Shown here: piece by piece, positions 50,073-64,000 of the stretch
How positions within the stretch are numbered: position 1 is the stretch's first letter
Layout of the letters: every line of letters begins with the position of its first letter
Source of the DNA: Streptomyces flavofungini
Lineage (GTDB): Bacteria; Actinomycetota; Actinomycetes; Streptomycetales; Streptomycetaceae
Direction: 5' to 3'
Assembly: GCF_030388665.1 (NCBI RefSeq)
Contig: NZ_CP128846.1
Coordinates: 9,024,001-9,088,000, forward strand
Length of the DNA: 64,000 nt
Notes under the pieces: generated by a model
The model's input: only the letters and a program-made list of their open reading frames with translations
What the model was told of the DNA's origin: nothing
Database searches by the model: none
Position numbers and translations under genes: made by a program

Positions 50073-51644
50073 TCACGGAGCGCGACGGACAGGCGAGCGG
50101 GAGAGACGACGGCTCAACAGGCAGCAGAGCAGCAGGACACCGATGGGCAGCGTCATCGTGGTGCGCCAGGCACTGAGGAACGTGTGCTGGAAGGCGGCGT
50201 CGGCGAAGTCGGTGAAGCGGGCGGTCTCGTACGGGGAAAGACCGGCGGGGGCCGGTGGCCGCGCGAGGCCGTCGCCGGCGCGGGACAGCAGGGAGTCGGT
50301 GAAGGGTGCGCGCAGCCGTGCGGGAAGGTCCTTCGCGGCGTCGTGGGCGTGCGCCGGTAGTTCGGCGGCCAGCCGCAGGCGCAGGAAGGAGCCGACGGCG
50401 ACCCCGCCCAGGACGCCGCCGAGCTGGCGGGCGGTGTTGAGCACGCCGGACGCGCCGGACGCGAGGGCCGGGGCGACGTGGTGCAGGGCGAGGGCCGTGA
50501 CGGGGGCGAGGGTGCAGCCGATGCCCGCGTCGGCGATCAGCATCGGAGGGAGCAGCTGCCAGGCGTTCATGCCGGGGCGGGCCCACAGGACGGTGAGGGC
50601 GAGCCCCGCCGCGTAGAGGAGCAGCCCGAAGGTGAGGAGCCGCCCGGTGCGCGCGCCCACGCTCCAGCGTCCCACCACGACGGCGACGACACCGACGGCC
50701 AGCGCCGAGGGAGCGGTGATCGTCGCGGCAGCGAGCGGCTCGTGCCCCAGGACGCTCTGGAGGTAGAGCAGCAGCGGCAGAACGGTGCCGAGCACGGCGA
50801 AGTGCACCCCGGCGCCGATGGCGGACGCCCCGGCGAACGCGGGAGCGCGGTACAGAGCCCGCGGCACCAAGGGCTCGCCGCGCGCCCGCCGTTGCTGCGC
50901 GACGAGGCAGACCAACAGGGCCACCCCCACACCCACCCAGGCCCCGGAGGCGGCCGACACCGCGCCGCCCGGGCGGCCGCACTCCAAGAGCCCATAGCAG
51001 AACGCGCCCAGGCCGGACGTCACCAAGAGCGTGCCGGTGACGTCCCAGCGATGCGGTACGCGCGGGCGGTGATCCGGGACGAACACGGCCGCGAGGACGA
51101 AGGCGACGGCGCCGACGGGCAGATGGGCCAGGAAGATCCACTCCCAGCCCGCGAGGGCGATCAGAGCGCCACCGGCCAGGGGGCCCGCCACGGCGGAGAG
51201 ACCGATCACCCCGCCCCAGACGCCGAACGCCGCGCCGCGCCGGCGCGGTGGGAACAGCACCGTGATGAACGCGCTCGTCTGCGGCGTCAGCAGGGCGGCG
51301 CCCAGGCCCTGGACCACGCGCAGCGCGGTCAGCTCGTGGATGCTGTCGGACGTCGCGCACCCGGCGGCCGCGAGCGTGAAGACCGTCAGGCCGACCAAGT
51401 ACAGCCGCTTGGGGCCGAAGCGGTCGCCCAGCCGCCCCGCCGTGATGAGCAGCGCGGCGTACGTCAGGACGTGGGCGTTCACCACCCACAGCGCCTCGGC
51501 GAGACCGGCGTCGAACTCGCTGATCATGACGGGGACGGCGGCGTTGACCATCGTCGTGTCCATGGTGATCGCGAAGAAGCCCACGCACAGCACGGCGAGG
51601 ATCAGCCACGGCCGACGGGGAGACGCAGGGGGCATGGGTGCCAC
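50073..51644 (-). CDS. MFS exporter, DHA2 (14-helix EmrB/QacA) family
   Basis: A 523-residue drug:proton antiporter. Helix 1 has MDTTMVNAAVPVM (DHA2 signature), motif A is GRLGDRFGPKRLYLVG, and motif C in helix 5 is GLSAVAGPLAGGAL (antiporter motif GxxxGPxxGG). Fourteen helices are expected from the hydrophobic pattern, with a large loop before the last helix. GTG 51644 or ATG 51635 starts it. It is the last gene of the synthase operon, so it probably exports the product and gives self-resistance (inference). Confidence 0.9.
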   Translation of the reverse strand: MAPMPPASPRRPWLILAVLCVGFFAITMDTTMVNAAVPVMISEFDAGLAEALWVVNAHVLTYAALLITAGRLGDRFGPKRLYLVGLTVFTLAAAGCATSDSIHELTALRVVQGLGAALLTPQTSAFITVLFPPRRRGAAFGVWGGVIGLSAVAGPLAGGALIALAGWEWIFLAHLPVGAVAFVLAAVFVPDHRPRVPHRWDVTGTLLVTSGLGAFCYGLLECGRPGGAVSAASGAWVGVGVALLVCLVAQQRRARGEPLVPRALYRAPAFAGASAIGAGVHFAVLGTVLPLLLYLQSVLGHEPLAAATITAPSALAVGVVAVVVGRWSVGARTGRLLTFGLLLYAAGLALTVLWARPGMNAWQLLPPMLIADAGIGCTLAPVTALALHHVAPALASGASGVLNTARQLGGVLGGVAVGSFLRLRLAAELPAHAHDAAKDLPARLRAPFTDSLLSRAGDGLARPPAPAGLSPYETARFTDFADAAFQHTFLSAWRTTMTLPIGVLLLCCLLSRRLSRSPVRRAP

Positions 51645-51683
51645 GATCCTTCGGAAGGGAGGCGGGAGCGTTGGTCGGGGCGT

Positions 51684-52433
51684 TCACCGGGCGCTGTAGC
51701 CGCCGTCGACGACGAGTTCGGCGCCGGTGACGTAGGAGGCGGCGGGCGAGGCGAGGAAGCCGACCGCGGCCGCCACTTCCTGCGGGCGGGCGACACGGCG
51801 CAGCGGCGTCGCGTCGATGGCCCGTTCCACGAACAGCGCCGGGGCGGTGCCGGTCATGGCCGTGGCGACCATGCCGGGGTAGACGGCGTTCACCCGGATC
51901 CCGCCGGGCGCGAGCTCGACGGCCGCGGCGGTCGTCATGGAGCGCACGGCGCCCTTGGCCGCGTGGTACGCGAACGAGGCGCCGGAGCCCACGAGCGCGT
52001 ACACCGAGGCGACGTTGACGATCGCGCCGCCGCCCGCGGAGCGCAGGCACGGGGCGACGGCCTTCATGCCGAGGAACGTGCCCCGCTGGCAGACGCGGAC
52101 CACGCGCACCCACTCCTGTTCGCCCGTGCCCTCCAGCGGCTGGTGCGCCAGCGCTCCGGCGTTGTTGACCAGCACGGTCAGTCGGCCGAAGCGGCGGCGG
52201 GCCAGCCGCGTCACGCGGTCCCACGCCTCGGGCTGGGTGACGTCGAGCGCGCAGCCCAGCGCCCGGCCGGGCCCGCCCGCCGTGTTGAGCTCCACCGCGG
52301 CCCGGTGGCAGGCGTCGCCGTCCAGGTCGGTCACCAGCACCCCCATGCCGTGCGCGAGGAAGTGCTCGGTGACGGCCCGGCCGATGCCGCCCAGCGCGCC
52401 CGTGACGAGGGCGACCTGGCTGCCCGCGGTCAC
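51684..52433 (-). CDS. Short-chain dehydrogenase/reductase
   Basis: A 249-residue classical SDR: cofactor motif VALVTGALGGIGRAV, LVTDLDGD (an acidic residue after strand 2, favouring NAD+), NNAGALAHQP, active-site Ser-Tyr-Lys in VNVASVYALVGSGASFAYHAAKGAV, and closing VVDGGYSAR. Its GTG start overlaps the stop of the AcpS-like gene by GTGA, so they are coupled. A dehydrogenase acting on a tailored intermediate is more likely than a second ketoreductase, because a FabG is also present in the operon. Substrate unknown. Confidence 0.88.
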   Translation of the reverse strand: MTAGSQVALVTGALGGIGRAVTEHFLAHGMGVLVTDLDGDACHRAAVELNTAGGPGRALGCALDVTQPEAWDRVTRLARRRFGRLTVLVNNAGALAHQPLEGTGEQEWVRVVRVCQRGTFLGMKAVAPCLRSAGGGAIVNVASVYALVGSGASFAYHAAKGAVRSMTTAAAVELAPGGIRVNAVYPGMVATAMTGTAPALFVERAIDATPLRRVARPQEVAAAVGFLASPAASYVTGAELVVDGGYSAR

Positions 52434-52807
52434 CGCCCGCCCGCCTTCGGCACCGGCAGCCAGGCGAGCGCCGCCGCGTGGCCCCTGGCGTGCGTCAGGG
52501 AGACACGGGGGTGCGGCAGGGCCCGCGTCCCCAGGAGCTCCCCGAGGGCGCCGCCGAGCCGGATCACCGGTCCGCTGCCGGGCGCCCGGAGCACACCGAC
52601 CGCCCGGCAGAACCCGGGGTCGGCCGCCACGTCCAGGAGCGACGCGACGGCGAGCTTGGCGGCCTTCCGCGCCGCCAGGTGCTCGTGCGCGCGGCGGAAG
52701 CCGCGGCTGAAGGAGATCTCCTCGGGGGTGAGCCAGTCGTGCCAGCACGCGGAGTCCGCGGCGGCGATCCGCTCGGGCGGGAGCAGGACGAGGGCGTGTG
52801 CCGCCAT
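52430..52807 (-). CDS. AcpS-fold protein lacking metal-ligand residues
   Basis: A 125-residue protein whose pattern follows holo-ACP synthase: LTPEEISFSRGFRRAHEHLAARKAAKLAVASLL, CRAVGVLRAPGSGPVIRLGG, HPRVSLTHARGHAAALAWLP. In active AcpS the first strand carries G-x-D and the helix carries A-A-K-E; here the first strand is LVLLPPERI and the helix reads AAKLAV, so both magnesium ligands are missing. It probably cannot transfer phosphopantetheine and may bind ACP in another role. The ATG overlaps the ketosynthase stop by one base and the stop overlaps the SDR start. Confidence 0.7.
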   Translation of the reverse strand: MAAHALVLLPPERIAAADSACWHDWLTPEEISFSRGFRRAHEHLAARKAAKLAVASLLDVAADPGFCRAVGVLRAPGSGPVIRLGGALGELLGTRALPHPRVSLTHARGHAAALAWLPVPKAGGR

Positions 52808-55290
52808 CACCGCACCGCCGTCTTCGCCGCCGGGCCGTCGTACGGCGCGAGCACGAGGGAGGCGTACGTGCCGCCCCAGTTGGCCGCCGTGACCAGACAC
52901 GCCCTGCCGGCGTCGGCGCTCGTACGGAGGTAGGCGTCGACGGGCCCCGGCGTGGACGGCGACGACGGCGTGGAGGCTGACGGCGCGGGGACATCGGGGC
53001 TCCAGCCGCTGCGCACGGTCTCGATCGCGCACACCGCGGACATCATGGAGGTGGTGCTGTGCACGTGCCCGACGTACGGGCTGAGGTTGCTCAGCCTGAC
53101 CTGCCCGGGTTGCCACACCCGGGTCACGGCGGCGGCCTCGGCGGTGTCGATGGCGGCCGTGCCGCGCGCGTCCCCGTACACGGTGCCGATGTCGTCGGCG
53201 GTCAGACCCGCGTGGTCGAGGGCGCGGGTGAAGCTCTCGGCCCAGGCCCGCCCGGAGGGGTCGTTCCCGGCGACGCGGTAGGCGTCGGAAGTCACCGCGT
53301 GGCCCTTGACCTCGGCGAGGATCGTCGCCCCGCGCTCCAGGGCGTGTTCCAGGGACTCCACGACGAGCGCGGCGCCGCCCGTGCCCAGCACGGTGCCGCC
53401 GGCCGGGGCGGTGTAGGGGCGGGGGGCGTCGTCGGAGAGCAGGCCCAGGCGGTCGAAGCCGCCGTGGAGCAGGGGGGTGAGCTCGTCGGCGCTGACCGCG
53501 AGCATGACGTCGGCCTCCCCGCGCCGCACGAGGTCGGCGGCGTAGCCCAGGCCGCTGAGGCCGGAGACGCAGCCGGTGGCCAGGGTCGACAGCGGGCCGC
53601 GGATCCGCAGGGCGAGGCAGGCGTGACCGGCCGCCGCGTTCATCACCGAGTTGGGGAAGAGGCGGGGGTTGACCCGGTGCGGGCCCACGGTGCCGATGGT
53701 CTCGCTGAGCTGGGCGACGGTCTGCATGGGCCCGCTGAAGGTGCCGAAGACCATGCCGACGCGTTCGGCGTTGGCCTTGCTGATGCGCAGACCGGCGTCG
53801 CCGACGGCGAGACGGCTGGCGGCGAGCGTGAGCAGGCCGATCTGGTCGAGGCGGCGCGCGTAGGCCGGGTCGACGTGACGTCGGCACGCGGCGCTGTCGA
53901 GCTCCGCGACCCGGCGGGTGCGGGACAGGGACACATCGGTGAGGCGGGCGTCCCCGACCGCGCTGGCACCCGCGCGCAGCGCGTCGAGGAAGTCCCGTCG
54001 GCCGCTGCCCAGCGCGGTGACGGGCCCCGCTCCGGTGATGACCACGCGGTGGTCGGGGACGTCCGCAGGAGGCACGGGACGACGGCCGAGGACGAGGGAG
54101 CAGTTGTTGCCGCCGAAGGCGAAGGAGTTGGAGACGACGACGTCCAGGAGGTGCGGGCGGGCGTGGTTGGCGACGATGTCGCGGGGGACGTCGGCGGGCT
54201 CGGTGACGTTGACGGTGGGCGGCAGGATCCCGTCGCGCAGCGCCAGGACGCAGATGGCCGCCTCCATGGCACCGGCGGCCCCGAGCATGTGGCCCACCTG
54301 GGACTTGGTGCTGCTCATGGGGGCCGGGGCCGCGGGCGAGAAGAGGTCGGCCACCGCCTTGGTCTCGGCCTTGTCGTTGGTCGGGGTGCCCGTGCCGTGA
54401 CCGTTGACGTAGTCGACGTCCTCGGGGGCCAGGGAGGCCTGGGCGAGGCTGCGGCGCATGGCCCGGTAGGCGCCGTTGCCTGCCGGGTCGGGGGCCGTGG
54501 CGTGGTAGCCGTCGCTGGTGGTCGCGTAGCCGAGGACGTAGCCGAGGGTGGGGGCGCGGCGCTCCCGGGCGAGGGACTCCGCCTCCAGGACGAGGAAGGC
54601 GGCTCCCTCGCCGAGGCTGGTGCCGGTGCTGCGCGAGTACGGCGCACAGGGCTCGGTGTCCAGGGCGTTGAGGCTGTCGAACCCGGCGAGGGAGAGGATG
54701 TCGAGCACGTCCACACCACCGGCGATCATGACGTCCGCCCGGCCTTCGCGGATGGCGTCCACCGCGTACCCGATCGAGTTGGACCCGGCCGCGCAGGCGT
54801 TGGACAGCACCACCTTCGGTCCCCGGAGCCGGAAGGCCACGCTGATCGCGTCCGCCGAGGTGTACAGCGGATAGCTGGTGAGCTGGTGGCGCGCGCCCGC
54901 GGTGGGGCCGTCCCTGAGGATGTCCCAGTGGAACCGCTCTCCGTGTTCGAGGCCGCCGACGGAGGTGCCGACGGCCACACCCACCCGGTAGGCGTCGTGG
55001 TCGGCCAGGCGCAGGTCCGCGCCCTCGACGGCCTCGCTCACGGCGGCCAGCGCGAGGCGCGTGGCGCGGTCGGGCCGGATGCCGGTGCGGGGCACGTCGG
55101 CGGGCACCGACCGCACCTCGCCCGCGTAGCGGCAGCTGAGCGTGGAGACATCGAGGCGCTGGGCCTTGCCGATGCCGCTGGCGCCGCTCCGCACGGCCCG
55201 CCAGACCTGTTCCGCGCCCGTGCCGAGCGCGCAACTGATGCCGATTCCGGTGACGGCGACGCTCTCTTGGCGCCGTTGGCTGGGGCTCAA
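52807..55290 (-). CDS. Tandem beta-ketoacyl synthase fusion (KS-KS)
   Basis: An 827-residue protein with two FabF-like ketosynthase domains in one chain. Domain 1 (about 10-405) has a full Cys-His-His triad: Cys166 in SNACAAGS, His298 in GHGTGTP, His334 in SQVGHMLGAAG. Domain 2 (about 413-817) keeps Cys574 (ATGCVSG) and His742 (YVGHVHS) but the first His motif has become GDARGTA (707-711). The layout resembles a KS-alpha/KS-beta pair of type II systems joined covalently, although classical KS-beta loses Cys rather than His. TTG 55290 has AGGAGA at seven bases. It extends an acyl chain by decarboxylative Claisen condensation on ACP. Confidence 0.88.
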   Translation of the reverse strand: MSPSQRRQESVAVTGIGISCALGTGAEQVWRAVRSGASGIGKAQRLDVSTLSCRYAGEVRSVPADVPRTGIRPDRATRLALAAVSEAVEGADLRLADHDAYRVGVAVGTSVGGLEHGERFHWDILRDGPTAGARHQLTSYPLYTSADAISVAFRLRGPKVVLSNACAAGSNSIGYAVDAIREGRADVMIAGGVDVLDILSLAGFDSLNALDTEPCAPYSRSTGTSLGEGAAFLVLEAESLARERRAPTLGYVLGYATTSDGYHATAPDPAGNGAYRAMRRSLAQASLAPEDVDYVNGHGTGTPTNDKAETKAVADLFSPAAPAPMSSTKSQVGHMLGAAGAMEAAICVLALRDGILPPTVNVTEPADVPRDIVANHARPHLLDVVVSNSFAFGGNNCSLVLGRRPVPPADVPDHRVVITGAGPVTALGSGRRDFLDALRAGASAVGDARLTDVSLSRTRRVAELDSAACRRHVDPAYARRLDQIGLLTLAASRLAVGDAGLRISKANAERVGMVFGTFSGPMQTVAQLSETIGTVGPHRVNPRLFPNSVMNAAAGHACLALRIRGPLSTLATGCVSGLSGLGYAADLVRRGEADVMLAVSADELTPLLHGGFDRLGLLSDDAPRPYTAPAGGTVLGTGGAALVVESLEHALERGATILAEVKGHAVTSDAYRVAGNDPSGRAWAESFTRALDHAGLTADDIGTVYGDARGTAAIDTAEAAAVTRVWQPGQVRLSNLSPYVGHVHSTTSMMSAVCAIETVRSGWSPDVPAPSASTPSSPSTPGPVDAYLRTSADAGRACLVTAANWGGTYASLVLAPYDGPAAKTAVR

Positions 55291-55348: not shown

Positions 55349-56368
55349 TCAGTCGAGCGGGACGCCGAGACTGGTCGCCGTCAGGAAGGGCGCGGACACG
55401 GTGCGCACCGCCGCTCCGCTGCCCTCCAGGTGGAAGTCCTGGCCCGAGGCGGCCACGCCCTGGTCGACGGCGGCGGTACCGATGAAGCGGCCGAGTCGGG
55501 GGGACCACACGCAGTGCGTGACGGTTCCCACGGCGGCGTCCTCGACCGCGACGGCGGTGCCTCGGGCGGGCGCCGCCTCCAGGCCGGGACCGGCGATCCA
55601 GCACACGGGCGAGCGGTGCGCGTGGCGGCGCCGCCCGTCCAGGGCCTTCCGCCCGGTGTGGTCCAGATCGGGGTCGAGCATCCACTGCAGACCGATGTCG
55701 TACGGGGTGACCGGACCGCCGGTGTGCTCGCTCTCGTGGTTGGCGAAGCGGACTTCCATGCGGCAGATGTCGAGCGCTTCCCTGCCGCATTCCACGGCGC
55801 CCCGCGCGATGAGCTCGGCGCGCAGGGACGCCGCCTGGTCGGCGGGGACGAGGAACTTGTAGCCGTACTCGCCGGTGACGCCGGTTCGGGAGAGCATCAC
55901 CGGCGTCTGGGCCCAGGTGACGGCGGTGCAGCTGCGGTAGGACAGCGAGGCGATGGGGAAGTCGAGGTACTGCTGCGCGATCTTGAAAGAGGTGGGGCCT
56001 TCGATGCCGAGCACCGTGAACCGGGTGCCGATGTCCTCGACGGTGACACCGGTACGGCCGTCGGCGGCCGCCAGCAGGTGGGCGGTGGCGGCGGGGGCCT
56101 GGTCCGGCCAGATCTCCAGGAGGTAGTCGGTGCCGCGGCAGTGGATGAGCGCTTCGGCGACGATGGTGCCGTCCTCGCGCAGGAGCAGCGACGAGGTGCT
56201 CTGGCCTTCGAGGAGGAAGTCGACGCCGCGCGTGCCGACCCGTCCCAGGAAGGCCGTGGCCTCGGGCCCGGTGACCGTCAGCAGGCCCGCGCCGTCGTAG
56301 TCGACGAGACCGGCGCCCTGGCGCAGGGCCGCGTACTCCTTGTCGGTGGTGGTGCGGTGAGTGGTCAT
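55349..56368 (-). CDS. GcvT-like folate-binding-fold protein
   Basis: A 339-residue protein of the glycine-cleavage T / YgfZ fold: YAALRQGAGLVDYDGAGLLTVTGPEATAFL, a central half (VEDIGTRFTVLGIEGPTSF ... LSRTGVTGEYGYKFLVP), ALDICRMEVRFANHESEHTGGPVTPYDIGLQWML and a C-terminal barrel (GTAVAVEDAAVGTVTHCVWSP). T-proteins move a one-carbon unit to tetrahydrofolate; the stretch equivalent to the catalytic Asp region reads TIVAEALIH, so ordinary T-protein chemistry is doubtful. ATG 56368 has GGAG upstream. There are no glycine-cleavage partners here; it lies within the ACP-dependent operon, so an ACP-bound substrate is possible. Confidence 0.85.
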   Translation of the reverse strand: MTTHRTTTDKEYAALRQGAGLVDYDGAGLLTVTGPEATAFLGRVGTRGVDFLLEGQSTSSLLLREDGTIVAEALIHCRGTDYLLEIWPDQAPAATAHLLAAADGRTGVTVEDIGTRFTVLGIEGPTSFKIAQQYLDFPIASLSYRSCTAVTWAQTPVMLSRTGVTGEYGYKFLVPADQAASLRAELIARGAVECGREALDICRMEVRFANHESEHTGGPVTPYDIGLQWMLDPDLDHTGRKALDGRRRHAHRSPVCWIAGPGLEAAPARGTAVAVEDAAVGTVTHCVWSPRLGRFIGTAAVDQGVAASGQDFHLEGSGAAVRTVSAPFLTATSLGVPLD

Positions 56369-56480: not shown

Positions 56481-56975
56481 TCACGGGGCGAGTTCGGTGA
56501 CGGCCAGGCGCGCGGTCATCACCAGCTCCCGGCCCACCGAGGCCTGCCCCGTGACGGAGATCAGACCGCCGAAGCGGGGTCCGCTGTGCGCGCGTACGGT
56601 GATCTGGTCGCCGGGGAGCACGGGTTTGAGGAACTTGGCCTGGCGGATCTCGGCGAGGTAGCCGACCCGGTCGGCGACGTCCGCCACCAGTTCGCCCGTG
56701 GCCGAGCGGGCGGCGGCGCTGCCGTAGATGACGGCGGCCAGTTGGGCCACGCATTCCACCAGGAGGACTCCTGGATAGAGCATGCGGCCGGGGAAGTGGC
56801 CGGCCAGGACGGCGTCGGAGGCGGTGACGTTCTTGATGGCCTCCGCGCTCGTGCCGGGGTCGAGCGCTGTGACGCGGTCGAGGAGGAAGAAGGGGTAGCG
56901 GTGCGGCAGCAGCCTGGCGATGTCGTCGGCGCCGAGCACGGCCTCGGTGGGCGGCGCGGAGGGCTGAGTGGTCAC
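56481..56975 (-). CDS. FabZ-type 3-hydroxyacyl-ACP dehydratase
   Basis: A 164-residue hotdog dehydratase: ARLLPHRYPFFLLDRVTALDPG, then the catalytic His60 in GHFPGRMLYPGV and Glu74 in LLVECVAQLAAV, and the closing strands KFLKPVLPGDQITVRAH. It removes water from 3-hydroxyacyl-ACP to give the trans-2-enoyl thioester. The GTG start overlaps the ACP stop by GTGA, so the two are translated together. With no enoyl reductase nearby, double bonds formed here would be retained. Confidence 0.9.
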   Translation of the reverse strand: MTTQPSAPPTEAVLGADDIARLLPHRYPFFLLDRVTALDPGTSAEAIKNVTASDAVLAGHFPGRMLYPGVLLVECVAQLAAVIYGSAAARSATGELVADVADRVGYLAEIRQAKFLKPVLPGDQITVRAHSGPRFGGLISVTGQASVGRELVMTARLAVTELAP

Positions 56976-57259
56976 GCGCGGGCGCCTTCGATGTGGTCGA
57001 CCAGGCGGTTCAGCGACAGCAGGCTGTGGGTGTCGTCGTCGGTGACGGTCACGCCGAAGGTGTCCTCCACCGCCATGGCCAGCTCGAGGGTGTCGATGGA
57101 GTCGAGTTCCAGGCCGCGGCCGAACAGCGGCTGGTCGTCGCCGATGGAGTTCGGGTCGACGTTCAGCGCGAGGCGTTCGACCAGCAGGGCCTTGACCCGC
57201 GTGCACAGCTCCTGCCGCGCGGCCGCTCGGCGGGTCGCCTCGTGAAGTGTCATCACCAT
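56972..57259 (-). CDS. Acyl carrier protein
   Basis: A 95-residue ACP: RVKALLVERLALNVDPNSIGDDQPLFGRGLELDSIDTLELAMAVEDTFGV. Ser54 in LDSID is the phosphopantetheine site (family motif DSL/DSI). Helices and acidic character are typical of a discrete type II ACP. AAGGGAGAA precedes ATG 57259. It carries the growing chain for the ketosynthase, FabG, FabZ and acyltransferase encoded beside it, and would be activated by the AcpS at 59187-59636. Confidence 0.92.
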   Translation of the reverse strand: MVMTLHEATRRAAARQELCTRVKALLVERLALNVDPNSIGDDQPLFGRGLELDSIDTLELAMAVEDTFGVTVTDDDTHSLLSLNRLVDHIEGARA

Positions 57260-57338: not shown

Positions 57339-58085
57339 CTAACAGATGAGGCCGCCGTCGACGACGAGGGAGGAGCCGGTGACGTAGGCGGCCGCGTCGC
57401 TGAGGAGGAACCGGACGGCGGACGCCACCTCTTGGGGCCGTCCGATGCGGCCGAGCGGCACGTGCCGCAGGTTCTCCGCGAGGCGGTCCGTGGGGATCTT
57501 CCGGGTCATCGAGGTGTCGATGAAGCCGGGCACCACGCAGTTCACGCGGACGCCGTGGGGGCCGAGTTCCTTGGCGAGCGCCTGGGTCAGGGCCATGGTT
57601 CCGGCCTTGGCGGCGGCGTAGTTGGCCTGCCCCACCGGGGGGCGTACGGCGCTCGTCGAACTCACGGTCACGATGGCTCCCGCGCGGCGCCGCGCCATCA
57701 GGCGGGCCGCCGCACGCATGCACAGGAACGCGCCGGTGAGGTTGGTGTCGATGACCTTGCGCCACTTGGCTTCGCCCATCATGAGGGCGTAGCCGTCCTC
57801 GGTGATGCCCGCGTTGCTGACGAAGGCGTCGAGACGGCCGTGGTCGTTCCTGATGGAGCGGAACATGTCCTCGATGGCGGCCGTGTCGGAGATGTCGGCC
57901 CGCAGGAGCCGGGCCTCGGGTTGGATCTCCCGTACCTGGGCCAGCGCCTCCGCGGCCTGCTCGGGCTTCCCGCGGTGGTTCATCAGGACTGTGGCCCCGT
58001 CACGGGCCAGCTCCAGTGCCACGGCCAGGCCGATGCCCCGGGTGGCACCGGTGACCAGGGCGACGCGTCCTTGAAGTTCGCTCAC
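57339..58085 (-). CDS. FabG-type 3-oxoacyl-ACP reductase
   Basis: A 248-residue SDR ketoreductase: VALVTGATRGIGLAVALELA, MNHRGK (basic residue after strand 2, favouring NADPH), NAGITEDGYALMMGEAKWRKVIDTNLTGAF, active-site Ser142-143, Tyr156 and Lys160 (GQANYAAAKAG), and C-terminal VTGSSLVVDGGLIC. The NAGITRD/LLMRM-type segment is characteristic of FabG, and here reads ITEDGYALMM. It reduces the 3-oxoacyl-ACP made by the ketosynthase. GTG 58085 lies one base beyond the acyltransferase stop. Confidence 0.9.
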   Translation of the reverse strand: MSELQGRVALVTGATRGIGLAVALELARDGATVLMNHRGKPEQAAEALAQVREIQPEARLLRADISDTAAIEDMFRSIRNDHGRLDAFVSNAGITEDGYALMMGEAKWRKVIDTNLTGAFLCMRAAARLMARRRAGAIVTVSSTSAVRPPVGQANYAAAKAGTMALTQALAKELGPHGVRVNCVVPGFIDTSMTRKIPTDRLAENLRHVPLGRIGRPQEVASAVRFLLSDAAAYVTGSSLVVDGGLIC

Positions 58086-58086
58086 G

Positions 58087-59190
58087 TCACTTGTTCCTTG
58101 CTTGAGAGGGCGTGGCGCTTGAGGAGGGTGCGGTGTTCGAAGGGGGTGAAGCGTCTGAAGGGGGTGGGGTGTTTGAGGAGGGCGCTGTGTGTGAGAGGCG
58201 AGCGGTGGTTGAGGAGAGAGCGGCGCTGGAGAGGGGAGCGGCGCACGGGCGGCCCGGCGCTCCGGGCGGCGCGAGCGTGTGGCGCGGCGCGTCCGCGGTC
58301 GTCAGGTGGCGTGCGGAGCGGGCCATCTCGCGGGCGAGGCCGTGCAGTACGCGCCCGGGCCCCGCTTCGATGTAGGTGTCCACGCCGAACGCGGTCAAGG
58401 TGTGCATGACGTCCTGCCAGCGCACGGGGGAGACGACCTGGGTCAGCAGGTCCTCGCGGTAGGCCTCGATGTCGGTGACCCGCAGCCCGGTGGTGCTGGA
58501 GACCAACGGGACGGCGGGCGGGGCGAGCGCGACGTCCGCGAGGTGCTCGACGAGGCGGTGCTGGGCGCTGTCCATCAGCGGCGAGTGGTAGGCCCCGCCG
58601 ACGGGCAGCACCCGGGCCCGCAGGGCGCCCGCGGCGCTCGCGGCGGCGGCGACCCGCCCGACCGCGTCCCGGCTCCCGGCGACCACGGTCTGGCGCGGTG
58701 AGTTCCAGTTGGCCACGACCGCGACCCCGTCGGCGGTCGAGGCGTCGGCGCACAGCCCGCGCACGACCTCCGGTGCGAGGCCGACGATCGCGGCCATGCC
58801 GCCCGGGCGCGCGGCGGCCGCGTCCGCCATCGCCCGGCCGCGCCGTGCGACCAGGGACAGCGCGGTGTTCTCGTCGAGGCATCCGCTCGCCACCAGCGCG
58901 GTGTACTCGCCCAGGCTGTGCCCGGCGACCACAGAGGGCGTCCAGCCGCGTCGGCGCAGGTGTTCCAGCGCGGCCAAGGACCATGTCAGGACGAGGACTT
59001 GGGCCACCTCGGGGTCGGTGAGCGCCCTGGCGTCGGCGCGCTTCATCAGCGCGCGCACCGGAAGCCCGGTGGCGTCCTCGGCCCGGCACGCCAGGGCGTC
59101 GGTCCAGGGGCCCCACCGCTCCATCTCGTAACCCATGCCGGGGTACTGGCTTCCCTGTCCGGGGAAGACGAAGGCCACGGTGGGGCTCAT
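58087..59190 (-). CDS. FabD-type malonyl/acyl-CoA:ACP transacylase with repetitive tail
   Basis: A 367-residue acyltransferase. Core: FVFPGQGSQYPGMG, nucleophile Ser92 in AGHSLGEYTALV, catalytic His202 in GGAYHSPLM, and VSPVRWQDVM ... YIEAGPGRVLHGL. The motif between them (NWNSPRQTVVAG) and the general FabD likeness suggest malonyl transfer onto the operon's ACP. From about residue 318 the protein continues into a 50-residue Ser/Pro/Thr/Ala tail of hexapeptide repeats not found in ordinary FabD. ATG 59190 overlaps the AcpS stop by ATGA. Confidence 0.88.
   Translation of the reverse strand: MSPTVAFVFPGQGSQYPGMGYEMERWGPWTDALACRAEDATGLPVRALMKRADARALTDPEVAQVLVLTWSLAALEHLRRRGWTPSVVAGHSLGEYTALVASGCLDENTALSLVARRGRAMADAAAARPGGMAAIVGLAPEVVRGLCADASTADGVAVVANWNSPRQTVVAGSRDAVGRVAAAASAAGALRARVLPVGGAYHSPLMDSAQHRLVEHLADVALAPPAVPLVSSTTGLRVTDIEAYREDLLTQVVSPVRWQDVMHTLTAFGVDTYIEAGPGRVLHGLAREMARSARHLTTADAPRHTLAPPGAPGRPCAAPLSSAALSSTTARLSHTAPSSNTPPPSDASPPSNTAPSSSATPSQARNK
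58100..58243. repeat. Eight 18-bp tandem repeats in the acyltransferase 3' end
   Basis: Degenerate 18-bp units of the form (T/C)TTGAGGAGGGTGCGGTG on the plus strand, eight in a row with frame kept, encoding hexapeptides such as APSSNT, APSSSA and SPPSNT in the acyltransferase tail on the reverse strand. Confidence 0.8.
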
Positions 59191-59636
59191 GAGCGCGGCC
59201 CCGCGGCCTGGGCCGCCGTCCACGCCAGGGCCATGCCGGACTCGAGGCGCGTCGACGCCCCGACGACGTCGAGCCGTTCGGCGCGGGCCCAGTCGCCGAG
59301 GGGGCCGCCCAGGCGCACGTGCCAGGGCTCCTCTGCGTCCCCTTCGAGGGGGATGCCGACGTGGATGTCCGCGAGGCGCCCTGTGGCGGGCAGGCCACCG
59401 GCCGCCTTGACGACGCTCTCCTTCACGCCGAAGAGGTGACCGAGGACCTCTACGAAGGTCCGGTCCGCGCCGGCGAGGTGCTGTGCGGCGTGCCGTTCCC
59501 CTGGCGTGAAGTACCGCCGCGCGAGGCCCTCCCCGCCGCGTGCCAGGGCGAGTTCCCAGCGGCGCAGGTCCACCAGGTCCACACCCGCTGATTGAAAGGA
59601 CGCCGGAATGCTCCCGGCTCCGTCTGGAATTCTCAT
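59187..59636 (-). CDS. Holo-ACP synthase (4'-phosphopantetheinyl transferase, AcpS type)
   Basis: A 149-residue AcpS. The first metal motif GVDLVDLRRWELAL includes Asp20 and the second, FGVKESVVKAAGG, includes Glu73, the two residues that hold magnesium. RRYFTPGERHAAQ is the usual intervening segment. It transfers phosphopantetheine from CoA to the Ser of the ACP. First gene of the minus-strand operon; its stop overlaps the acyltransferase start. A GGAG lies eight bases before ATG 59636. A dedicated AcpS suggests that the pathway ACP is not served by the primary enzyme. Confidence 0.88.
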   Translation of the reverse strand: MRIPDGAGSIPASFQSAGVDLVDLRRWELALARGGEGLARRYFTPGERHAAQHLAGADRTFVEVLGHLFGVKESVVKAAGGLPATGRLADIHVGIPLEGDAEEPWHVRLGGPLGDWARAERLDVVGASTRLESGMALAWTAAQAAGPRS

Positions 59637-59964
59637 TTCTTGGTCTCCGCCCGTTCGGAAGAGGCGAGTTCGGAGAAGGAATTGGTTTCCCCTACGGAAA
59701 TGGCTCGGATCGCCTCCGGGGAACTCCTCCAGGCGGCATGAACTTAAAGTCGGCGTCGAATGCCTGTCAAAGGAGGCGTCATACGCGCGTCAGATTCCGG
59801 GCCGTCACGGGCCGGCCGCCGAAAGGTGCGCGCCAGCCGTGAAACGTAGCGGACACCTTCGGGATCCGCGCGGGACTTCTGGGCTTGTCTGGGAGCGGAC
59901 GCAACAGCGCTGACCGCCGTGGGCCCGGAGCCCGGCGGCGGCTCAGGAGGAGATCGAGGAGACC
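59637..59964. promoter_or_regulatory. Divergent promoter region of the biosynthetic locus
   Basis: A 328-bp gap between the two divergent operons. It contains a short inverted repeat TTTCC-CCTAC-GGAAA at 59686-59700 near the AcpS start, which may be an operator. GAGGAG-type ribosome sites precede both first genes. No convincing -10/-35 pair can be chosen by eye. Confidence 0.45.
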
Positions 59965-60504
59965 ATGCCACGTCTCGTGCAGTCGGCCACGAACATCATG
60001 CGCGACGTCAGCGTAGAGGCCACGGCCCGGGTCCGCTGGGGGGAGTGCGACCTGCAGGGTCACGCGTACTACGCCAGTTACATTCCCTGGTTCGACCTCG
60101 GGCGGGAAAAATTCGCCCTGGACGTCGGCGCCGACTACCGCAAGTACCAGATCGCCACGACCGATCTGTACGTCCGCTACCACCAGCCCGCCAAGTACCT
60201 TGACGAGCTCGTGATCAGGACGTGGGCGGCCGCGCCCGGCACCCTCACCTATTACTACGAGATCTACCGGAAGCAGGGCGGTCTGCTCGTCGCCGAGGCG
60301 CGCACCATCCACGCTTTCGTCGACGCGGAGCGCGGGGTGCTGACAAAAATCCCCGACGACATGCATCACGCTTTCGTGGAATTCCTGGAGAAATACCGCG
60401 AGCGCAAGCGGAACGCGGCCCCCGCCGGGGCACCGGACGCGCGCTCCCGGTCCGAGCGGGACATCGCCACGAGTTCATCCCGAGAGATTGGAGAGACGTC
60501 ATGA
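59965..60504 (+). CDS. Hotdog-fold acyl thioesterase (4HBT/YbgC type)
   Basis: A 179-residue thioesterase: VRWGECDLQGHAYYASYIPWFDLGREKF contains the conserved Asp29 and His33 region of 4-hydroxybenzoyl-CoA thioesterase-like enzymes; LYVRYHQPAKYLDELVIRTWA and LTYYYEIYRKQGGLLVAEARTIHAFVDAE complete the fold. A 30-residue Arg/Ser-rich tail follows. It would hydrolyse the acyl-ACP or acyl-CoA to release the chain. First gene of the plus-strand operon; its stop overlaps the next start by ATGA. GAGGAG lies ahead of ATG 59965. Confidence 0.88.
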   Translation: MPRLVQSATNIMRDVSVEATARVRWGECDLQGHAYYASYIPWFDLGREKFALDVGADYRKYQIATTDLYVRYHQPAKYLDELVIRTWAAAPGTLTYYYEIYRKQGGLLVAEARTIHAFVDAERGVLTKIPDDMHHAFVEFLEKYRERKRNAAPAGAPDARSRSERDIATSSSREIGETS

Positions 60505-61901
60505 AGCACGGTGCGCTCGACCGCCTGCGCGCGCGGCTGCTGGGCGAGGTCGTGGGCCCCGCGGACGCCGGTTACGACACCGTGCGCCGGGTCTACAACG
60601 CCATGATCGACAAGCGGCCCGCGGTCATCGCCCGGTGCCTGGGAACGGCGGACGTCGTCGCGGCGGTGCGCTTCGCCCGCGAGGAGGGGCTCCTCATCGC
60701 CGTGCGCGGCGGCGGCCACAGCGTCGCCGGGCACGGGATGTGCGACGACGGACTCGTCATCGATCTGTCCCTCATGCGGGGCGTCCACGTCGACCCCCAG
60801 CGCCGGACCGTACGCGTACAGGGCGGAGCGCTGCTCGCAGACGTGGACCGCGAGACGCAGCTGCACGGCCTGGCGATCCCGACCGGGCAGATGTCGGAGA
60901 CCGGCATCGCCGGGCTCACCCTCAACGGCGGCGTCGGCATGATGCTCCACAAGTACGGCCTGACCTGTGACAACCTCCTGTCCGCCGACGTGGTCACCGT
61001 CGACGGCGGCCTGGTGACCGCCCGCGCCGACAGCCACCAGGAACTCTTCTGGGCGCTGCGCGGCGGCGGAGGCAATTTCGGCGTGGTGACCTCCTTCGAG
61101 TTCCAGGCGCACCCGGTCGGGCCGATGATGCTGGCGGGATTCCTCGCCCACCCCGTCGAACAGGCCGAGGAAGTCCTCACCTTTCTCAGGGACTTCAGCG
61201 CCACGAGCCCGTCGCACCTGAGCGCGGACGCGCTGTTCATCCACGCCCCCGAGGCGGACTTCGTGCCCGAGGAGTTCCAGGGCATGCCGATGGTGGCGCT
61301 GTTCGTGCGCTACTTCGGCCCCATGGAGGACGCGTGGGACACCGTACGGCCCCTGCGGGACTTCGGCAGTCCGCTGTACGACAGCCTCGGCCCGATGCCC
61401 CTGGTGGCCGTGCAGTCGATGCTGGACGCGTTCACCCCGGCGGGCAACCTGCACTACTGGACCAGTGAGTTCCTGCCCAGCTTCGACGCGGAGCAGATCG
61501 CGGCCGTCGCGGCCATCGGCGCCGACCTGCCGTCGTCGCTCACCACCATCAACGTCCACCCCTTCGACACGGCGGCCACGGCGGTCGCCGCGGACGCCAC
61601 CGCCTTCGCGCACCGGGAGGACAGCTGGCTCATCCACGTGATCTGTCAGTGGAAGGACCCCGCCGACTCCGACCGCTGCCGGGCGTGGGTGAAGAAGGCG
61701 AGCGTTCAGCTCAAGGCCTTCAGCCACGGCAACACCTACCTCAACACCACATCCGAGGACGACGAGACGGACCGCGTGCGGGCCTTCTGGGACGAGCCGC
61801 GCCTGGCGCGCCTCGCCCGGGTCAAGGCGATGTACGACCCGGACAACCTGCTGCGGTTCAACCACAACATCACCCCGGCTCCCCCACGGACCCCGCGGTG
61901 A
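60501..61901 (+). CDS. FAD-linked oxidase (berberine-bridge-enzyme type)
   Basis: A 466-residue flavoprotein. FAD domain: RGGGHSVAGHG with His73, the usual attachment point of the 8-alpha-histidyl FAD, and TGQMSETGIAGLTLNGGVGMM, which lacks the Cys used for a second covalent bond. GGGGNFGVVTSFEF is the conserved PCMH segment. The BBE C-terminal motif is present as NTYLNTTSEDDETDR and RLARVKAMYDPDNLLRFNHNI. Members oxidise alcohols, sugars or C-C bonds using oxygen. Within the operon it is a tailoring oxidase; overlaps both neighbours by 4 nt. Confidence 0.9.
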   Translation: MKHGALDRLRARLLGEVVGPADAGYDTVRRVYNAMIDKRPAVIARCLGTADVVAAVRFAREEGLLIAVRGGGHSVAGHGMCDDGLVIDLSLMRGVHVDPQRRTVRVQGGALLADVDRETQLHGLAIPTGQMSETGIAGLTLNGGVGMMLHKYGLTCDNLLSADVVTVDGGLVTARADSHQELFWALRGGGGNFGVVTSFEFQAHPVGPMMLAGFLAHPVEQAEEVLTFLRDFSATSPSHLSADALFIHAPEADFVPEEFQGMPMVALFVRYFGPMEDAWDTVRPLRDFGSPLYDSLGPMPLVAVQSMLDAFTPAGNLHYWTSEFLPSFDAEQIAAVAAIGADLPSSLTTINVHPFDTAATAVAADATAFAHREDSWLIHVICQWKDPADSDRCRAWVKKASVQLKAFSHGNTYLNTTSEDDETDRVRAFWDEPRLARLARVKAMYDPDNLLRFNHNITPAPPRTPR

Positions 61902-63418
61902 ACCGCCCCCGCCGCGCTCCGCGGCACCACCGCCCGGTCCACGTGGTGATCATCGGGGCGGGCATCAGCGGCCTCGGCCTGGGCATGGCCCTCAAGCGGG
62001 CGGGCCACCACGACTTCACGATCCTGGAGCGGGCCGACGACATCGGCGGGGTGTGGCGCGACAACACCTACCCCGGCGCTGCCTGCGACATCCCCGCCCC
62101 CCTGTACTCCTACTCGTTCGCGCCGCACACCTGGACCCGGCGCTACGCCGGACAGCGGGAGATCCTTGACTACCTGCGCGGCTGCGCGGACGCGTACGAC
62201 CTGAGCGACCATCTGCGCCTGGGCACCGAGGTCAGCGAGGCACGCTTCGACGAACCCACCCGCCGCTGGCACCTGCGCACGCGACAGGGCGACACCTACG
62301 AGGCGGACGTCCTGGTCCCGGCCTGCGGCCAGCTGAGCCACCCCTCCGCACCCCACCTGCCCGGCACCGAGCGCTTCACGGGACGGATCTTCCACTCGGC
62401 GCGCTGGGACCACGGCCTGGACCTGACCGGCCGCAGGGTCGCGGTGATCGGGACCGGCGCCAGCGCCCTGCAGATCGTGCCCGAGGTGGCGAAGCGAGCG
62501 GCGCACCTGACGGTGTTCCAACGCTCGGCGCCCTACGTGGTGCCCCGCTGGCAACGCGCCTACCGCCCCGGCGGCGGGCCCTTCGGCCGCGTCGGCGCCA
62601 AGGCGGCACGCCTGGGCTGGTGGCTGTTCAACGAGCTGACCGTGCCCGGCCTCACCCGAAGGTGGCGCACCCGCGGCTTCACGGCCTTCGGCTGCGCGGC
62701 CCAGCTGCGCCGGCAGGTCCACGACCCCGAGCTCCGCGAGCGCCTCACCCCCCGCGACGAAGTGGGCTGCAAGAGGATCGGCATCTCCAGCGACTACTAC
62801 CCCGCCTTCAACGCACCCCACGTCGAACTGGTCACCGACCCCATCGCGGAACTCACCGAGACGACCGTCCGCACCGGGAGCGGCGGCGAGCACCCGGTCG
62901 ACGTCATCATCCAGGCCACCGGCTTCGCGGCCACGGACTTCCTCGCGTCGCTGCACGTCACCGGGCGCCAGGGCCGCCCGCTGGCCCACCACTGGCACAG
63001 CGGCGCCAGGGCGTACCTGGGGATGACGGTGCCCGGCTTCCCCAACATGTTCCTCCTGTACGGACCGCACACCAACGTCGGTGCCGGCTCGGTCGTCTAC
63101 ATGGTCGAGAGCCAGATCCGCTACGTCCTGGACGCGCTGCGCGTCATCGGGCGCGGCACACGCCCGCTGCTCGACGTGCGCGCGGACGCCGAGGACACGT
63201 TCACCGCGGAGATGCGGCACCGCCTGAGGGCCACCGTCTGGTCGGCCTGCCGCAACTGGTACCGCGGCGGAAACGGCTCCGTCACCACCAACTGGCCCGG
63301 TCAGACGGCGGAGTACCGCCGCCGCACCCGCCGCGTGAACCTCGCGCACTACCAGCCGCGCGATCCCGCGGACCACCCGCGCGCACCACGGACGTCCGCC
63401 CGCTCGCGCACCCCCTGA
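61898..63418 (+). CDS. Baeyer-Villiger-type flavin monooxygenase
   Basis: A 506-residue class B flavoprotein monooxygenase. FAD motif VVIIGAGISGLGLGMALKRAG (17-37), the BVMO fingerprint F-x-G-x-x-x-H-x-x-x-W-D at 160-171 (FTGRIFHSARWD), and NADPH motif VAVIGTGASALQIVPEVA. GGVWRDNTYPGAACDIPAPLYSYSF is typical of BVMOs rather than N-hydroxylases. It can turn a ketone into an ester or lactone, or oxidise a heteroatom. GTG 61898 overlaps the preceding stop by GTGA. The C-terminal 20 residues are Arg/Pro-rich. The neighbouring esterase could act on its ester product. Confidence 0.9.
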   Translation: MNRPRRAPRHHRPVHVVIIGAGISGLGLGMALKRAGHHDFTILERADDIGGVWRDNTYPGAACDIPAPLYSYSFAPHTWTRRYAGQREILDYLRGCADAYDLSDHLRLGTEVSEARFDEPTRRWHLRTRQGDTYEADVLVPACGQLSHPSAPHLPGTERFTGRIFHSARWDHGLDLTGRRVAVIGTGASALQIVPEVAKRAAHLTVFQRSAPYVVPRWQRAYRPGGGPFGRVGAKAARLGWWLFNELTVPGLTRRWRTRGFTAFGCAAQLRRQVHDPELRERLTPRDEVGCKRIGISSDYYPAFNAPHVELVTDPIAELTETTVRTGSGGEHPVDVIIQATGFAATDFLASLHVTGRQGRPLAHHWHSGARAYLGMTVPGFPNMFLLYGPHTNVGAGSVVYMVESQIRYVLDALRVIGRGTRPLLDVRADAEDTFTAEMRHRLRATVWSACRNWYRGGNGSVTTNWPGQTAEYRRRTRRVNLAHYQPRDPADHPRAPRTSARSRTP

Positions 63419-63437
63419 CGCCGTAGGAGAAGTCCCC

Positions 63438-64000
63438 ATGTCCTTGCACCCGCAAGCCGAGGCGTTCCTGGAGCAGCTGGCCCGGCTGCGCATGCCTGCC
63501 TTCGAATCGGTCGACGTACCCACCATCCGGGAACTCATGGGCGGCCTGCGGCAGGCCCAAGGGGCGCCCGAGCCGATCACGTCGATCACCGACACCCAGG
63601 TGCCGGGCCCGGCGGGCAAGCTGCCGGTCCGCGTCTACCAGCCCTCCGCCCGCCCCGGCCCGCGCCCCCTCATGGTGTTCTTCCACGGCGGCGGCTGGGT
63701 CGCCGGGGACGTGGAGCTGGTGGACCGGCCGCTGCGGAAGCTGGCCAACGCCAGCGGCGCCGTCGTGGCCAGCGTGGAGTACCGGCGCGCCCCCGAGACA
63801 CAGTTCCCCGGCCCCGCCGAGGACGCGTACGCCGCGATCGGCGCCCTGGCCGAGCGCGCGGAGGAACTCGGCGCCGATCCCGCACGCCTGGTGGTCGCGG
63901 GGGAGAGCGCGGGAGGAAACCTGGCGGCGGCCGCGTGCCTGATGTCCAGGGACCGCGGCGGGCCCGCGATCGCCGCGCAGCTGCTGATCTGCCCGAGCCT
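63438..64000 (+). CDS. HSL-family alpha/beta hydrolase / esterase (partial, runs off right edge)
   Basis: Open to the window end with 187 codons visible. ATG 63438 follows TAGGAGA. The hormone-sensitive-lipase signature HGGGW (MVFFHGGGWVAGDVELVD) forms the oxyanion hole and the nucleophile elbow is GESAGG (LVVAGESAGGNLAAAACLM). VASVEYRRAPETQFPGPAEDAYAA is typical of the family. The catalytic Asp and His are beyond the edge. It lies 19 bp after the monooxygenase in the same direction, consistent with hydrolysis of an ester made by that enzyme. Confidence 0.9.
   Translation, partial: MSLHPQAEAFLEQLARLRMPAFESVDVPTIRELMGGLRQAQGAPEPITSITDTQVPGPAGKLPVRVYQPSARPGPRPLMVFFHGGGWVAGDVELVDRPLRKLANASGAVVASVEYRRAPETQFPGPAEDAYAAIGALAERAEELGADPARLVVAGESAGGNLAAAACLMSRDRGGPAIAAQLLICPS

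What the first reader, a model, noticed from the sequence alone, without database searches (positions are those of the whole stretch)
50073..64000. A compact, divergent type II-like synthase locus of unknown product
The sequence directly shows AcpS, acyltransferase, FabG, ACP, FabZ, a GcvT-like protein, a KS-KS fusion, a degenerate AcpS, an SDR and an MFS exporter on one strand, and thioesterase, BBE oxidase, BVMO and esterase on the other, largely joined by 1-4 nt overlaps. Family knowledge says this can run condensation, ketoreduction and dehydration; no enoyl reductase is seen, so an unsaturated chain is expected. The combination of a KS-KS fusion, GcvT-like protein and pseudo-AcpS matches no described pathway that I can name. 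Product and novelty are inference.
Basis: partly seen in the sequence, partly recalled or inferred. Interest (0 to 1): 0.85.

Follow-up and report, generated by a model that had tools for sequence, protein, structure and literature searches.

The report
Streptomyces polyene cluster related to granadaene
A Streptomyces gene cluster that should build a long chain of alternating double bonds, using the same core machinery as a known bacterial pigment but with a different set of finishing enzymes; its product is not known.

Summary
The 'KS-KS fusion' is a ketosynthase fused to its chain-length factor. 'Matches no described pathway' does not hold: AT-FabG-ACP-FabZ-GcvT-(KS-CLF) is the core of cyl (granadaene) operons, and one GcvT relative is named 'MtcH' (52% identical), which I recall as metatricycloene, a polyene from soil DNA. 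The locus lacks CylE, the ornithine N-acyltransferase reported as universal in cyl operons; its KS-CLF falls in a supported clade outside the CylE-bearing ones. Priestia megaterium plasmid pBM500 carries the same core, eight genes in the same order. The cluster runs 4.3 kb past the window (aldehyde dehydrogenase, aspartate decarboxylase, AsnB-like amidotransferase); all 17 genes recur in order in the six other Streptomyces loci with a closely related fusion. Most likely it makes a polyenoic acid, freed by the thioesterase, then oxidised and probably amidated. Two further results: AcpS and the 'degenerate AcpS' carry complementary halves of one active site in 9 of 9 pairs, suggesting a two-subunit phosphopantetheinyl transferase; and GcvT has an acid at the catalytic position in 128 of 129 rows of its own kind, but in 0 of 24 of the cyl-type clades. 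Product and enzyme roles are inference.

The parts
59187..59636 (-). AcpS-like PPTase subunit A (keeps GxD and KE..K; lacks the Arg and the S-L-T-H of full AcpS)
   Evidence: PF01648 4.5e-9 over residues 18-80 of 149; motif table
58087..59190 (-). malonyl-type acyltransferase (FabD/CylD-like), with a low-complexity C-terminal tail
   Evidence: PF00698 7.6e-43; TIGR00128 238.6 bits, below its cut-off of 260.9
57339..58085 (-). FabG-type ketoreductase
56972..57259 (-). acyl carrier protein (DSI serine motif)
   Evidence: PF00550 1.6e-10
56481..56975 (-). FabZ-type dehydratase
   Evidence: PF07977 1.6e-18; PRK00006 over cut-off
55349..56368 (-). GcvT-like folate-fold protein (CylF/MtcH type), Glu72 at the T-protein Asp96 position
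52807..55290 (-). KS-CLF fusion (CylI-type); KS half with intact Cys-His-Lys-His, CLF half without the first catalytic His
52430..52807 (-). AcpS-fold PPTase subunit B (keeps Arg and S-L-T-H, lacks GxD)
   Evidence: profile of 7 relatives vs S. coelicolor AcpS 1.1e-12; model pLDDT 89.5, AcpS fold
51684..52433 (-). SDR dehydrogenase/reductase (YxxxK)
   Evidence: conserved in six Streptomyces loci; pBM500 also has an SDR gene, elsewhere in the row, orthology not shown
50073..51638 (-). MFS exporter (DHA2 type)
   Evidence: PF07690 1.9e-52; TIGR00711 over cut-off
59965..60504 (+). 4HBT-type thioesterase, proposed chain release in place of CylE
   Evidence: PF13279 1.3e-16; homologue in pBM500
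60501..61901 (+). BBE-type flavin oxidase; nearest solved structure EncM
   Evidence: PF01565/PF08031; EncM 1.2e-101
61898..63418 (+). type I Baeyer-Villiger monooxygenase (FTGRIFHSARWD fingerprint)
63438..64000 (+). HSL-type (acetyl) esterase, continues to about 64403; followed outside the window by ALDH 64417-65835, PanD 65930-66352 and AsnB-like 66419-68263 (all +)

Best explanation
A polyene-making, highly reducing type II polyketide synthase cluster of 17 genes (MFS to AsnB-like), belonging to a CylE-less sister branch of the granadaene (cyl) operons, the branch to which the protein named MtcH is related. Proposed working: two AcpS-fold subunits (AcpS and the 'degenerate' one) together convert the ACP to its holo form; the AT loads malonyl; the fused KS-CLF elongates; FabG and FabZ reduce and dehydrate each cycle, with no enoyl reductase, giving a conjugated polyene; the thioesterase releases the free acid instead of CylE passing it to ornithine; the EncM-like oxidase, BVMO, esterase and ALDH oxidise and trim the chain (one coherent route: sec. 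alcohol or ketone end to ester to primary alcohol to acid); the AsnB-like enzyme, whose best solved match is a hydroxyamidotransferase, amidates a free carboxyl; PanD supplies beta-alanine as building block or for CoA; the MFS protein exports the product. SHOWN by computation: gene content, conserved order, KS with complete active site plus CLF without one, no CylE homologue and no recognised enoyl reductase in the cluster, complementary AcpS motifs, GcvT fold and conserved acid. INFERRED: every reaction, the order of tailoring, chain length and product.
For: Core order shared with cyl-type loci including Acidipropionibacterium thoenii L031, a species that PMC6920887 (passages) links to granadaene and a cyl-like cluster. 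KS1 active site intact in 36 of 36 aligned fusions, first catalytic His of KS2 absent in 36 of 36 (window plus 35 of the 37 loci taken, L038 and L040 fell below the filters). 17 genes in the same order in the six other Streptomyces loci with a 73-91% identical fusion, PanD and AsnB adjacent in all six. pBM500: PPTase, AT, FabG, ACP, FabZ, GcvT, KS-CLF and an AcpS-like second protein in the same order, plus TE, an SDR and MFS; 9 of its 11 proteins have a significant window counterpart. KS-CLF tree: window, L007-L013, L033 and 33 database rows (three of them copies of L011, L013 and L033) form one clade, SH-aLRT 99. GcvT relative named MtcH. AsnB-like protein matches 7ylz hydroxyamidotransferase over its whole length, 716 bits. 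CylE profile: hits 26 loci (the profile was built from these), not the extended window, L007-L013 or L033 at E <= 10.
Against: No product is known. The link mtc = metatricycloene is recall; the paper is not held, so its gene order was not compared. pBM500 lacks BBE, BVMO, EST, ALDH, PanD and AsnB, and its TE and SDR stand in other places, so tailoring is not part of the shared core; the window's SDR matches the pBM500 fabG better than its SDR. PanD is the only panD hit in this genome and may serve ordinary pantothenate synthesis. L013 has a DUF2269 gene where subunit B would stand. The second AcpS-like proteins of the window and of pBM500 do not match each other by BLASTP; they join only through L033. 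4 of 9 subunit B proteins still keep the KE Glu, so the split is not total. L021 lacks CylE yet lies inside the CylE-bearing Bacillota clade, and L124-L126, also without a recognised CylE, sit on a separate long branch, so CylE loss and clade do not coincide. 5 of 37 fusion loci show no recognised GcvT (L023, L028, L032, L036, L040).
Confidence: 0.75

Rival explanations
1. A granadaene operon proper, making an ornithine (rhamno-)polyene pigment.
For: Same six-gene core and order.
Against: No CylE homologue in the extended cluster by profile at E <= 10 or in the whole genome by one distant query (no positive control in that call); no ABC transporter or glycosyltransferase recognised among the 17 genes (the rest of the genome was not searched for them); separate KS-CLF clade.
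Confidence: 0.04
2. A cyclopentane-forming type II PKS of the cispentacin/coronafacic acid kind.
For: NCBIfam AmcF model scores 352.9 bits, over its cut-off of 325; FabZ hits the AmcE model.
Against: The AmcF score sums two KS halves (2 stretches) and fabF scores higher still (566.8); the AmcE hit of 74 bits is below its cut-off of 140; apart from these two no Amc model appears in the listed rows (at most 25 per protein).
Confidence: 0.05
3. Ordinary or remodelled fatty-acid synthesis.
For: AT, FabG, ACP, FabZ and AcpS families are fatty-acid-like.
Against: CLF without catalytic His fused to KS, no enoyl reductase or FabH recognised in the cluster, rare in the genus (2 of 199 genomes, own included), tied to tailoring genes.
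Confidence: 0.03
4. The AsnB-like enzyme makes a hydroxamate, as TsnB9 does for trichostatin A, so the product is a polyene hydroxamate.
For: Closest solved structure is the hydroxyamidotransferase 7ylz; a TsnB9-type enzyme acts on a free carboxylic acid (PMC13418202, passages). That 7ylz is TsnB9 is inferred from its name and a reference title there.
Against: No amidooxygenase (TsnB6/7 type) recognised among the 17 genes, though none was searched by sequence; Cys2 of the glutaminase domain is kept, which allows plain ammonia transfer.
Confidence: 0.15
5. The second AcpS-like gene is a decaying or regulatory relic, and AcpS or a housekeeping PPTase acts alone.
For: It lacks the GxD motif in 9 of 9; L013 has another gene in its place.
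Against: Its Arg and S-L-[TSA]-H, lost in the partner, are kept in 9 of 9; a gene of this kind follows KS-CLF from Streptomyces to Paenibacillus and Priestia.
Confidence: 0.3

Closest known systems
cyl operon (granadaene), Streptococcus agalactiae, Acidipropionibacterium (PMC6985545, PMC6920887)
   Same: AT, FabG, ACP, FabZ, GcvT-like and KS core in one operon; no enoyl reductase in the described pathway; PPTase gene included
   Different: No CylE, no CylA/B ABC transporter and no glycosyltransferase recognised among the 17 genes; GcvT with an acid at the catalytic position; two complementary AcpS halves, where the Bacillota cyl-type loci L014 and L021 have one full AcpS; operon TE-BBE-BVMO-EST-ALDH-PanD-AsnB; MFS export
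mtc cluster (MtcH, 'uncultured bacterium'; metatricycloene by recall)
   Same: GcvT-like MtcH 52% identical over 89% of the query
   Different: Rest of the mtc cluster not seen here; whether it has BBE, BVMO, PanD or AsnB genes is unknown to me
Priestia megaterium plasmid pBM500 locus (NC_014025)
   Same: PPTase, AT, FabG, ACP, FabZ, GcvT, KS-CLF and second AcpS-like gene in the same order; also a TE, an SDR and an MFS gene
   Different: No BBE, BVMO, esterase, ALDH, PanD or AsnB; TE and SDR precede the PPTase gene on the same strand, whereas in the window TE is divergent and SDR follows subunit B
Ishigamide highly reducing type II PKS (KS-CLF structure 6kxd)
   Same: KS plus CLF and polyene logic (PMC7949117, passages); beta-alanine amide in the product (recalled)
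   Different: KS and CLF are separate proteins (Iga11 and its CLF); window KS1 scores 188 bits against 6kxd and 268 against the best FabF; GcvT in the iga cluster not known to me

Membership tests
cyl (granadaene) operon | AT-FabG-ACP-FabZ-GcvT-(KS-CLF) core | tested here: met
cyl (granadaene) operon | CylE N-acyltransferase (stated universal in PMC6985545) | tested here: not met
   CylE profile does not hit the extended window, L007-L013 or L033 at E <= 10; whole-genome search empty (no positive control)
cyl (granadaene) operon | CylA ABC transporter in the operon | tested here: not met
   no ABC protein recognised among the 17 genes; MFS instead
mtc (metatricycloene) type cluster | GcvT-like protein of the MtcH family | tested here: met
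   P0228, 52% identity
mtc (metatricycloene) type cluster | same gene set and order as the mtc cosmid | not testable with these tools
   paper not held; the cosmid record was not met in any search made here
highly reducing type II PKS | active KS with inactive CLF partner, KR and DH, no ER | tested here: met
   by sequence only:
highly reducing type II PKS | polyene product | not testable with these tools
   no metabolite data
AcpS holo-ACP synthase (subunit A, 59187-59636) | GxD, R..KE..K and S-x-[ST]-H motifs in one chain | tested here: not met
   GxD and KE..K kept, Arg and S-x-H absent in 9 of 9
AcpS holo-ACP synthase (subunit B, 52430-52807) | AcpS fold | tested here: met
GcvT aminomethyltransferase | T-protein fold | tested here: met
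GcvT aminomethyltransferase | NCBIfam equivalog cut-off | tested here: not met
   TIGR00528 91.5 bits, cut-off 235.85
Type I BVMO | FxGxxxHxxxW[PD] fingerprint (recalled motif) | tested here: met
   FTGRIFHSARWD in the sequence
TsnB hydroxamate cassette | amidooxygenase partner (TsnB6/7) | tested here: inconclusive
   no such gene recognised among the 17, but TsnB6/7 were not searched by sequence

The most novel reading that the evidence does not exclude
In this CylE-less polyene class the carrier protein is activated by a PPTase split over two genes, each an AcpS paralogue holding half of the active site (a two-gene counterpart of Sfp), and the GcvT-like protein performs a real folate-dependent one-carbon step on the polyene or its release product, a role lost in the granadaene branch.
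Probability: 0.3. Interest if true: 0.75.

Novelty: new variant of a known kind. Interest (0 to 1): 0.5.

Why it matters
It connects an unexplained Streptomyces locus with a known pigment system and shows a branch that a survey anchored on CylE (PMC6985545) would not have listed. It bears on an open question stated there: what the GcvT-like protein CylF does. That paper predicts that it frees ammonia for ornithine. Here it is kept without CylE, and with a catalytic-type acid that 0 of 24 proteins of the cyl-type clades have at that position, so a role in the chain itself is more likely. The complementary AcpS pair is directly testable in vitro with three small proteins.

Tried and rejected
Considered and dropped: cyclopentane (cispentacin/coronafacic/sarkomycin) pathways (PMC10698177, part 1 of 8 read), because the AmcF score is a sum over two KS halves and the rest does not match; aryl polyene, because no aryl starter gene was recognised among the 17 genes; ordinary fatty-acid synthesis. 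Literature searches for sarkomycin, for GcvT with polyketide, for granadaene with Streptomyces, for AsnB/PanD/BVMO polyene clusters and for pBM500 gave no paper on this cluster among the listed titles; (ishigamide or beta-alanine) was badly framed and useless. The word metatricycloene occurs in none of the four held papers in which I looked for it. All 10 paper searches are spent, so 'metatricycloene' and split PPTases were never searched across the library; I make no claim that either point is absent from print.

Caveats on counts. The 24 'CylE-bearing' GcvT rows and the 26 'CylE' tree rows were labelled before one search showed that one of them, L021, has no CylE; read them as 'cyl-type clades'. 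10 of those 24 carry Asp one position earlier (Tm D95). The 129 rows of the other group include 119 database proteins chosen by similarity to the window (a few are copies of L007-L012 proteins), whose neighbourhoods were not seen. In one search I put in 44 of the 120 listed database proteins and left out L036; L038 had dropped out by the filter; the method was quick (SH-aLRT only). Catalytic Asp96 of the T-protein, the Sfp residue split, EncM Thr139, the BVMO fingerprint and all statements on metatricycloene and on the ishigamide product are recalled.

Contig co-occurrence: I matched contig lengths by hand-typed numbers; of the KS rows P0001-P0092 I left out P0037 (no contig) and the fragments P0086, P0087, P0089 and P0091. 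Of 54 KS rows on contigs of 10 kb or more, 27 share a length with a GcvT row and 16 with a BBE row; the lists are cut at 120, so these are lower bounds and rest on equal length meaning same contig.
Full report
WHAT IS THERE. The window is position 9024001-9088000 of a 9.11-Mb contig of a 9.36-Mb genome, close to the contig's end; the genus is Streptomyces by its nearest relatives. The cluster continues past 64000: the esterase ends at about 64403, then an aldehyde dehydrogenase, an aspartate decarboxylase (PanD) and an AsnB-like amidotransferase follow on the same strand to about 68263.

CONSERVATION. A protein-pattern scan of named genomes (507 relatives, best 80 kept) returned six Streptomyces loci with a closely related fusion (L007-L012; 73-91% identity). 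In all six the whole set MFS-SDR-PPT2-KSCLF-GcvT-FabZ-ACP-FabG-AT-AcpS | TE-BBE-BVMO-EST-ALDH-PanD-AsnB is present with the same relative order and strands (PanD and AsnB places). Three further Streptomyces loci of that scan with a 41-44% identical KS (L022, L039, L060) do not carry the set. It is rare: 2 of 199 Streptomyces genomes, own included, at E <= 1e-150; 11 of 296 genomes of the class at E <= 1e-100, own included, 9 of them at 38-45% identity.

THE SYNTHASE. In 36 aligned fusions (window plus 35 of 37 loci taken) KS1 keeps Cys, His, Lys and His in all 36; KS2 lacks the first catalytic His in all 36, so no KS2 keeps the full triad. KS2 of the window still has the Cys; two of the seven Streptomyces (L008, L009) have Gly there. 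So the fusion is KS plus chain-length factor. With FabG and FabZ and no recognised enoyl reductase this predicts a conjugated polyene (inference from the known logic of highly reducing type II PKSs).

RELATION TO CYL OPERONS. The core recurs in Agreia, Propionibacteriaceae (A. thoenii included), Actinomyces, Kitasatospora (AT not recognised there) and many Bacillota. PMC6985545 (abstract, passages and section 7 read) describes cyl operons with this core, calls CylE universal and labels operons by their cylE gene, and predicts that CylF (the GcvT-like protein) makes ammonia for ornithine. PMC6920887 (passages) ties the cluster to granadaene in Acidipropionibacterium. A CylE profile, built from loci held here, hits 26 of them and misses the extended window, L007-L013, L021, L033 and L036 at E <= 10. 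In a tree of 82 fusions the window, L007-L013, L033 and 33 database proteins (three are copies of L011, L013, L033; others are from Kribbella, Nocardia, Kibdelosporangium and a Priestia plasmid) form one clade with SH-aLRT 99, apart from the CylE-bearing clades. L021, CylE-less, lies inside the CylE-bearing Bacillota group, which looks like a loss there; L124-L126, with no CylE hit by single queries, sit on a separate long branch. A recognised GcvT is missing from 5 of the 37 fusion loci.

THE SHARED CORE. Plasmid pBM500 of Priestia megaterium QM B1551 carries SDR, thioesterase, PPTase, malonyltransferase, fabG, ACP, fabZ, GcvT-like, KS-CLF, a hypothetical protein and an MFS transporter in one row. 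From PPTase to the hypothetical protein the order is that of the window (eight genes); TE and SDR stand elsewhere. Best window matches: KS-CLF 40%, FabG 44%, FabZ 46%, ACP 47%, TE 41%, GcvT 31%, AT 30%, PPTase 35% over 80 residues, MFS 26%. The hypothetical protein matches the second AcpS-like protein of Paenibacillus shirakamiensis L033 (1.4e-15), which matches that of the window (1.5e-8); window and pBM500 do not match directly. The window's SDR is closest to the fabG of pBM500, so orthology of the SDR is not shown. The six tailoring genes from BBE to AsnB are absent there. BBE goes with the clade beyond Streptomyces: 16 of 54 KS rows on contigs of at least 10 kb share their contig length with a BBE row (see caveat).

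TWO HALVES OF A PPTase. Full AcpS proteins (L014, L021, L036) show GxD, R..KE..K and S/T-H. The first-gene AcpS keeps GxD and KE..K but has neither the Arg nor S-x-H in 9 of 9 loci (window, L007-L012, L033, pBM500); the second AcpS-like protein keeps Arg, Lys and S-L-[TSA]-H in 9 of 9 and lacks GxD in 9 of 9, though 4 of 9 still have the Glu of KE. The second protein has an AcpS fold. PMC3447402 (passages) states that CoA and ACP dock at the interface of two adjacent AcpS monomers, that Arg45, Arg53, Asn81 and His103 surround the 3'-phosphate while Asp8, Glu58, Lys62, Ser102 and His103 touch the 5'-phosphate, and that the two domains of Sfp resemble two adjacent AcpS monomers. The simplest reading is a two-gene, Sfp-like PPTase; that the residues lost in each half come from opposite monomers is recalled from Sfp, not tested. 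L013 is against generality: a DUF2269 gene stands where subunit B would be, and the contig begins after the place of subunit A.

TAILORING. BBE: best solved match EncM over nearly the whole length, with the GGGHS motif and the Thr of SET/SHT kept (meaning of these residues recalled). BVMO: type I fingerprint. Esterase: HSL type with HGGG and GESAG (sequence). AsnB-like: MCGIAG start (Cys2 kept); best solved match the hydroxyamidotransferase 7ylz, 716 bits against 150 for E. coli AsnB. A TsnB9-type enzyme acts on a free carboxylic acid (PMC13418202, passages); that 7ylz is TsnB9 is inferred. A thioesterase that frees the acid followed by such an enzyme makes a carboxamide (or, with a hydroxylamine donor, a hydroxamate) the likely end. 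The BBE-BVMO-EST-ALDH row fits oxidative trimming of the other end, as in methyl-ketone breakdown (recalled chemistry); this is a proposal. PanD keeps the Gly-Ser cleavage site; it is the only panD hit in this genome, whereas five of the six relatives with this cluster have two or more hits.

VERDICT. Real, conserved and biosynthetic; a new variant within a known class, not a class of its own. What is new here is the cluster's true extent, its place relative to cyl operons, and two testable mechanistic points (split PPTase, GcvT with a catalytic-type acid).

Noticed in passing
window 42270-45761 (-): An AMP-binding acyl ligase (42270-44189) with a Trans_reg_C protein and a HATPase protein upstream; the ligase and the Trans_reg_C gene recur near the cluster in 6 of 6 relatives, in L011 on its other side, so they may belong to it.
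   Followed up: partly
window 1367-3730 (-): MmpL3-like RND transporter whose homologues (52-54% identical) stand near the MFS gene of the cluster in L007-L011 but lie about 46 kb away here.
   Followed up: partly
window 45926-48883 (+): Large LuxR-family ATPase regulator (AAA_16, GerE) left of the cluster, found beside the cluster in L012 but in none of the other five relatives' stretches.
   Followed up: partly
window 58087-58300 (-): The acyltransferase ends in a Ser/Thr/Pro-rich low-complexity tail of about 50-60 residues outside the Pfam domain.
   Followed up: no
L087 2930-3352 (+): The cluster's PanD is the only aspartate decarboxylase hit in this genome; likewise in the genome of L007.
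   Followed up: partly
L124 7563-13900, L125, L126: Another GcvT plus KS-CLF variant in unnamed actinobacteria: no CylE hit by single queries; in L124 a protein with a FAD_binding_3 domain and an alpha/beta hydrolase follow the fusion.
   Followed up: partly
L131 11953-14322; L132 9974-12367: KS-KS fusions with no GcvT annotated in the stretch: on Streptomyces linear plasmid pSITFR-16a beside two more KS genes, and in Lachnospira eligens with ACP, FabG, FabZ and AT.
   Followed up: no
L021 8320-12826: Metabacillus malikii locus with GcvT directly after FabZ, full AcpS and no CylE, inside the CylE-bearing clade: apparent loss of CylE.
   Followed up: partly
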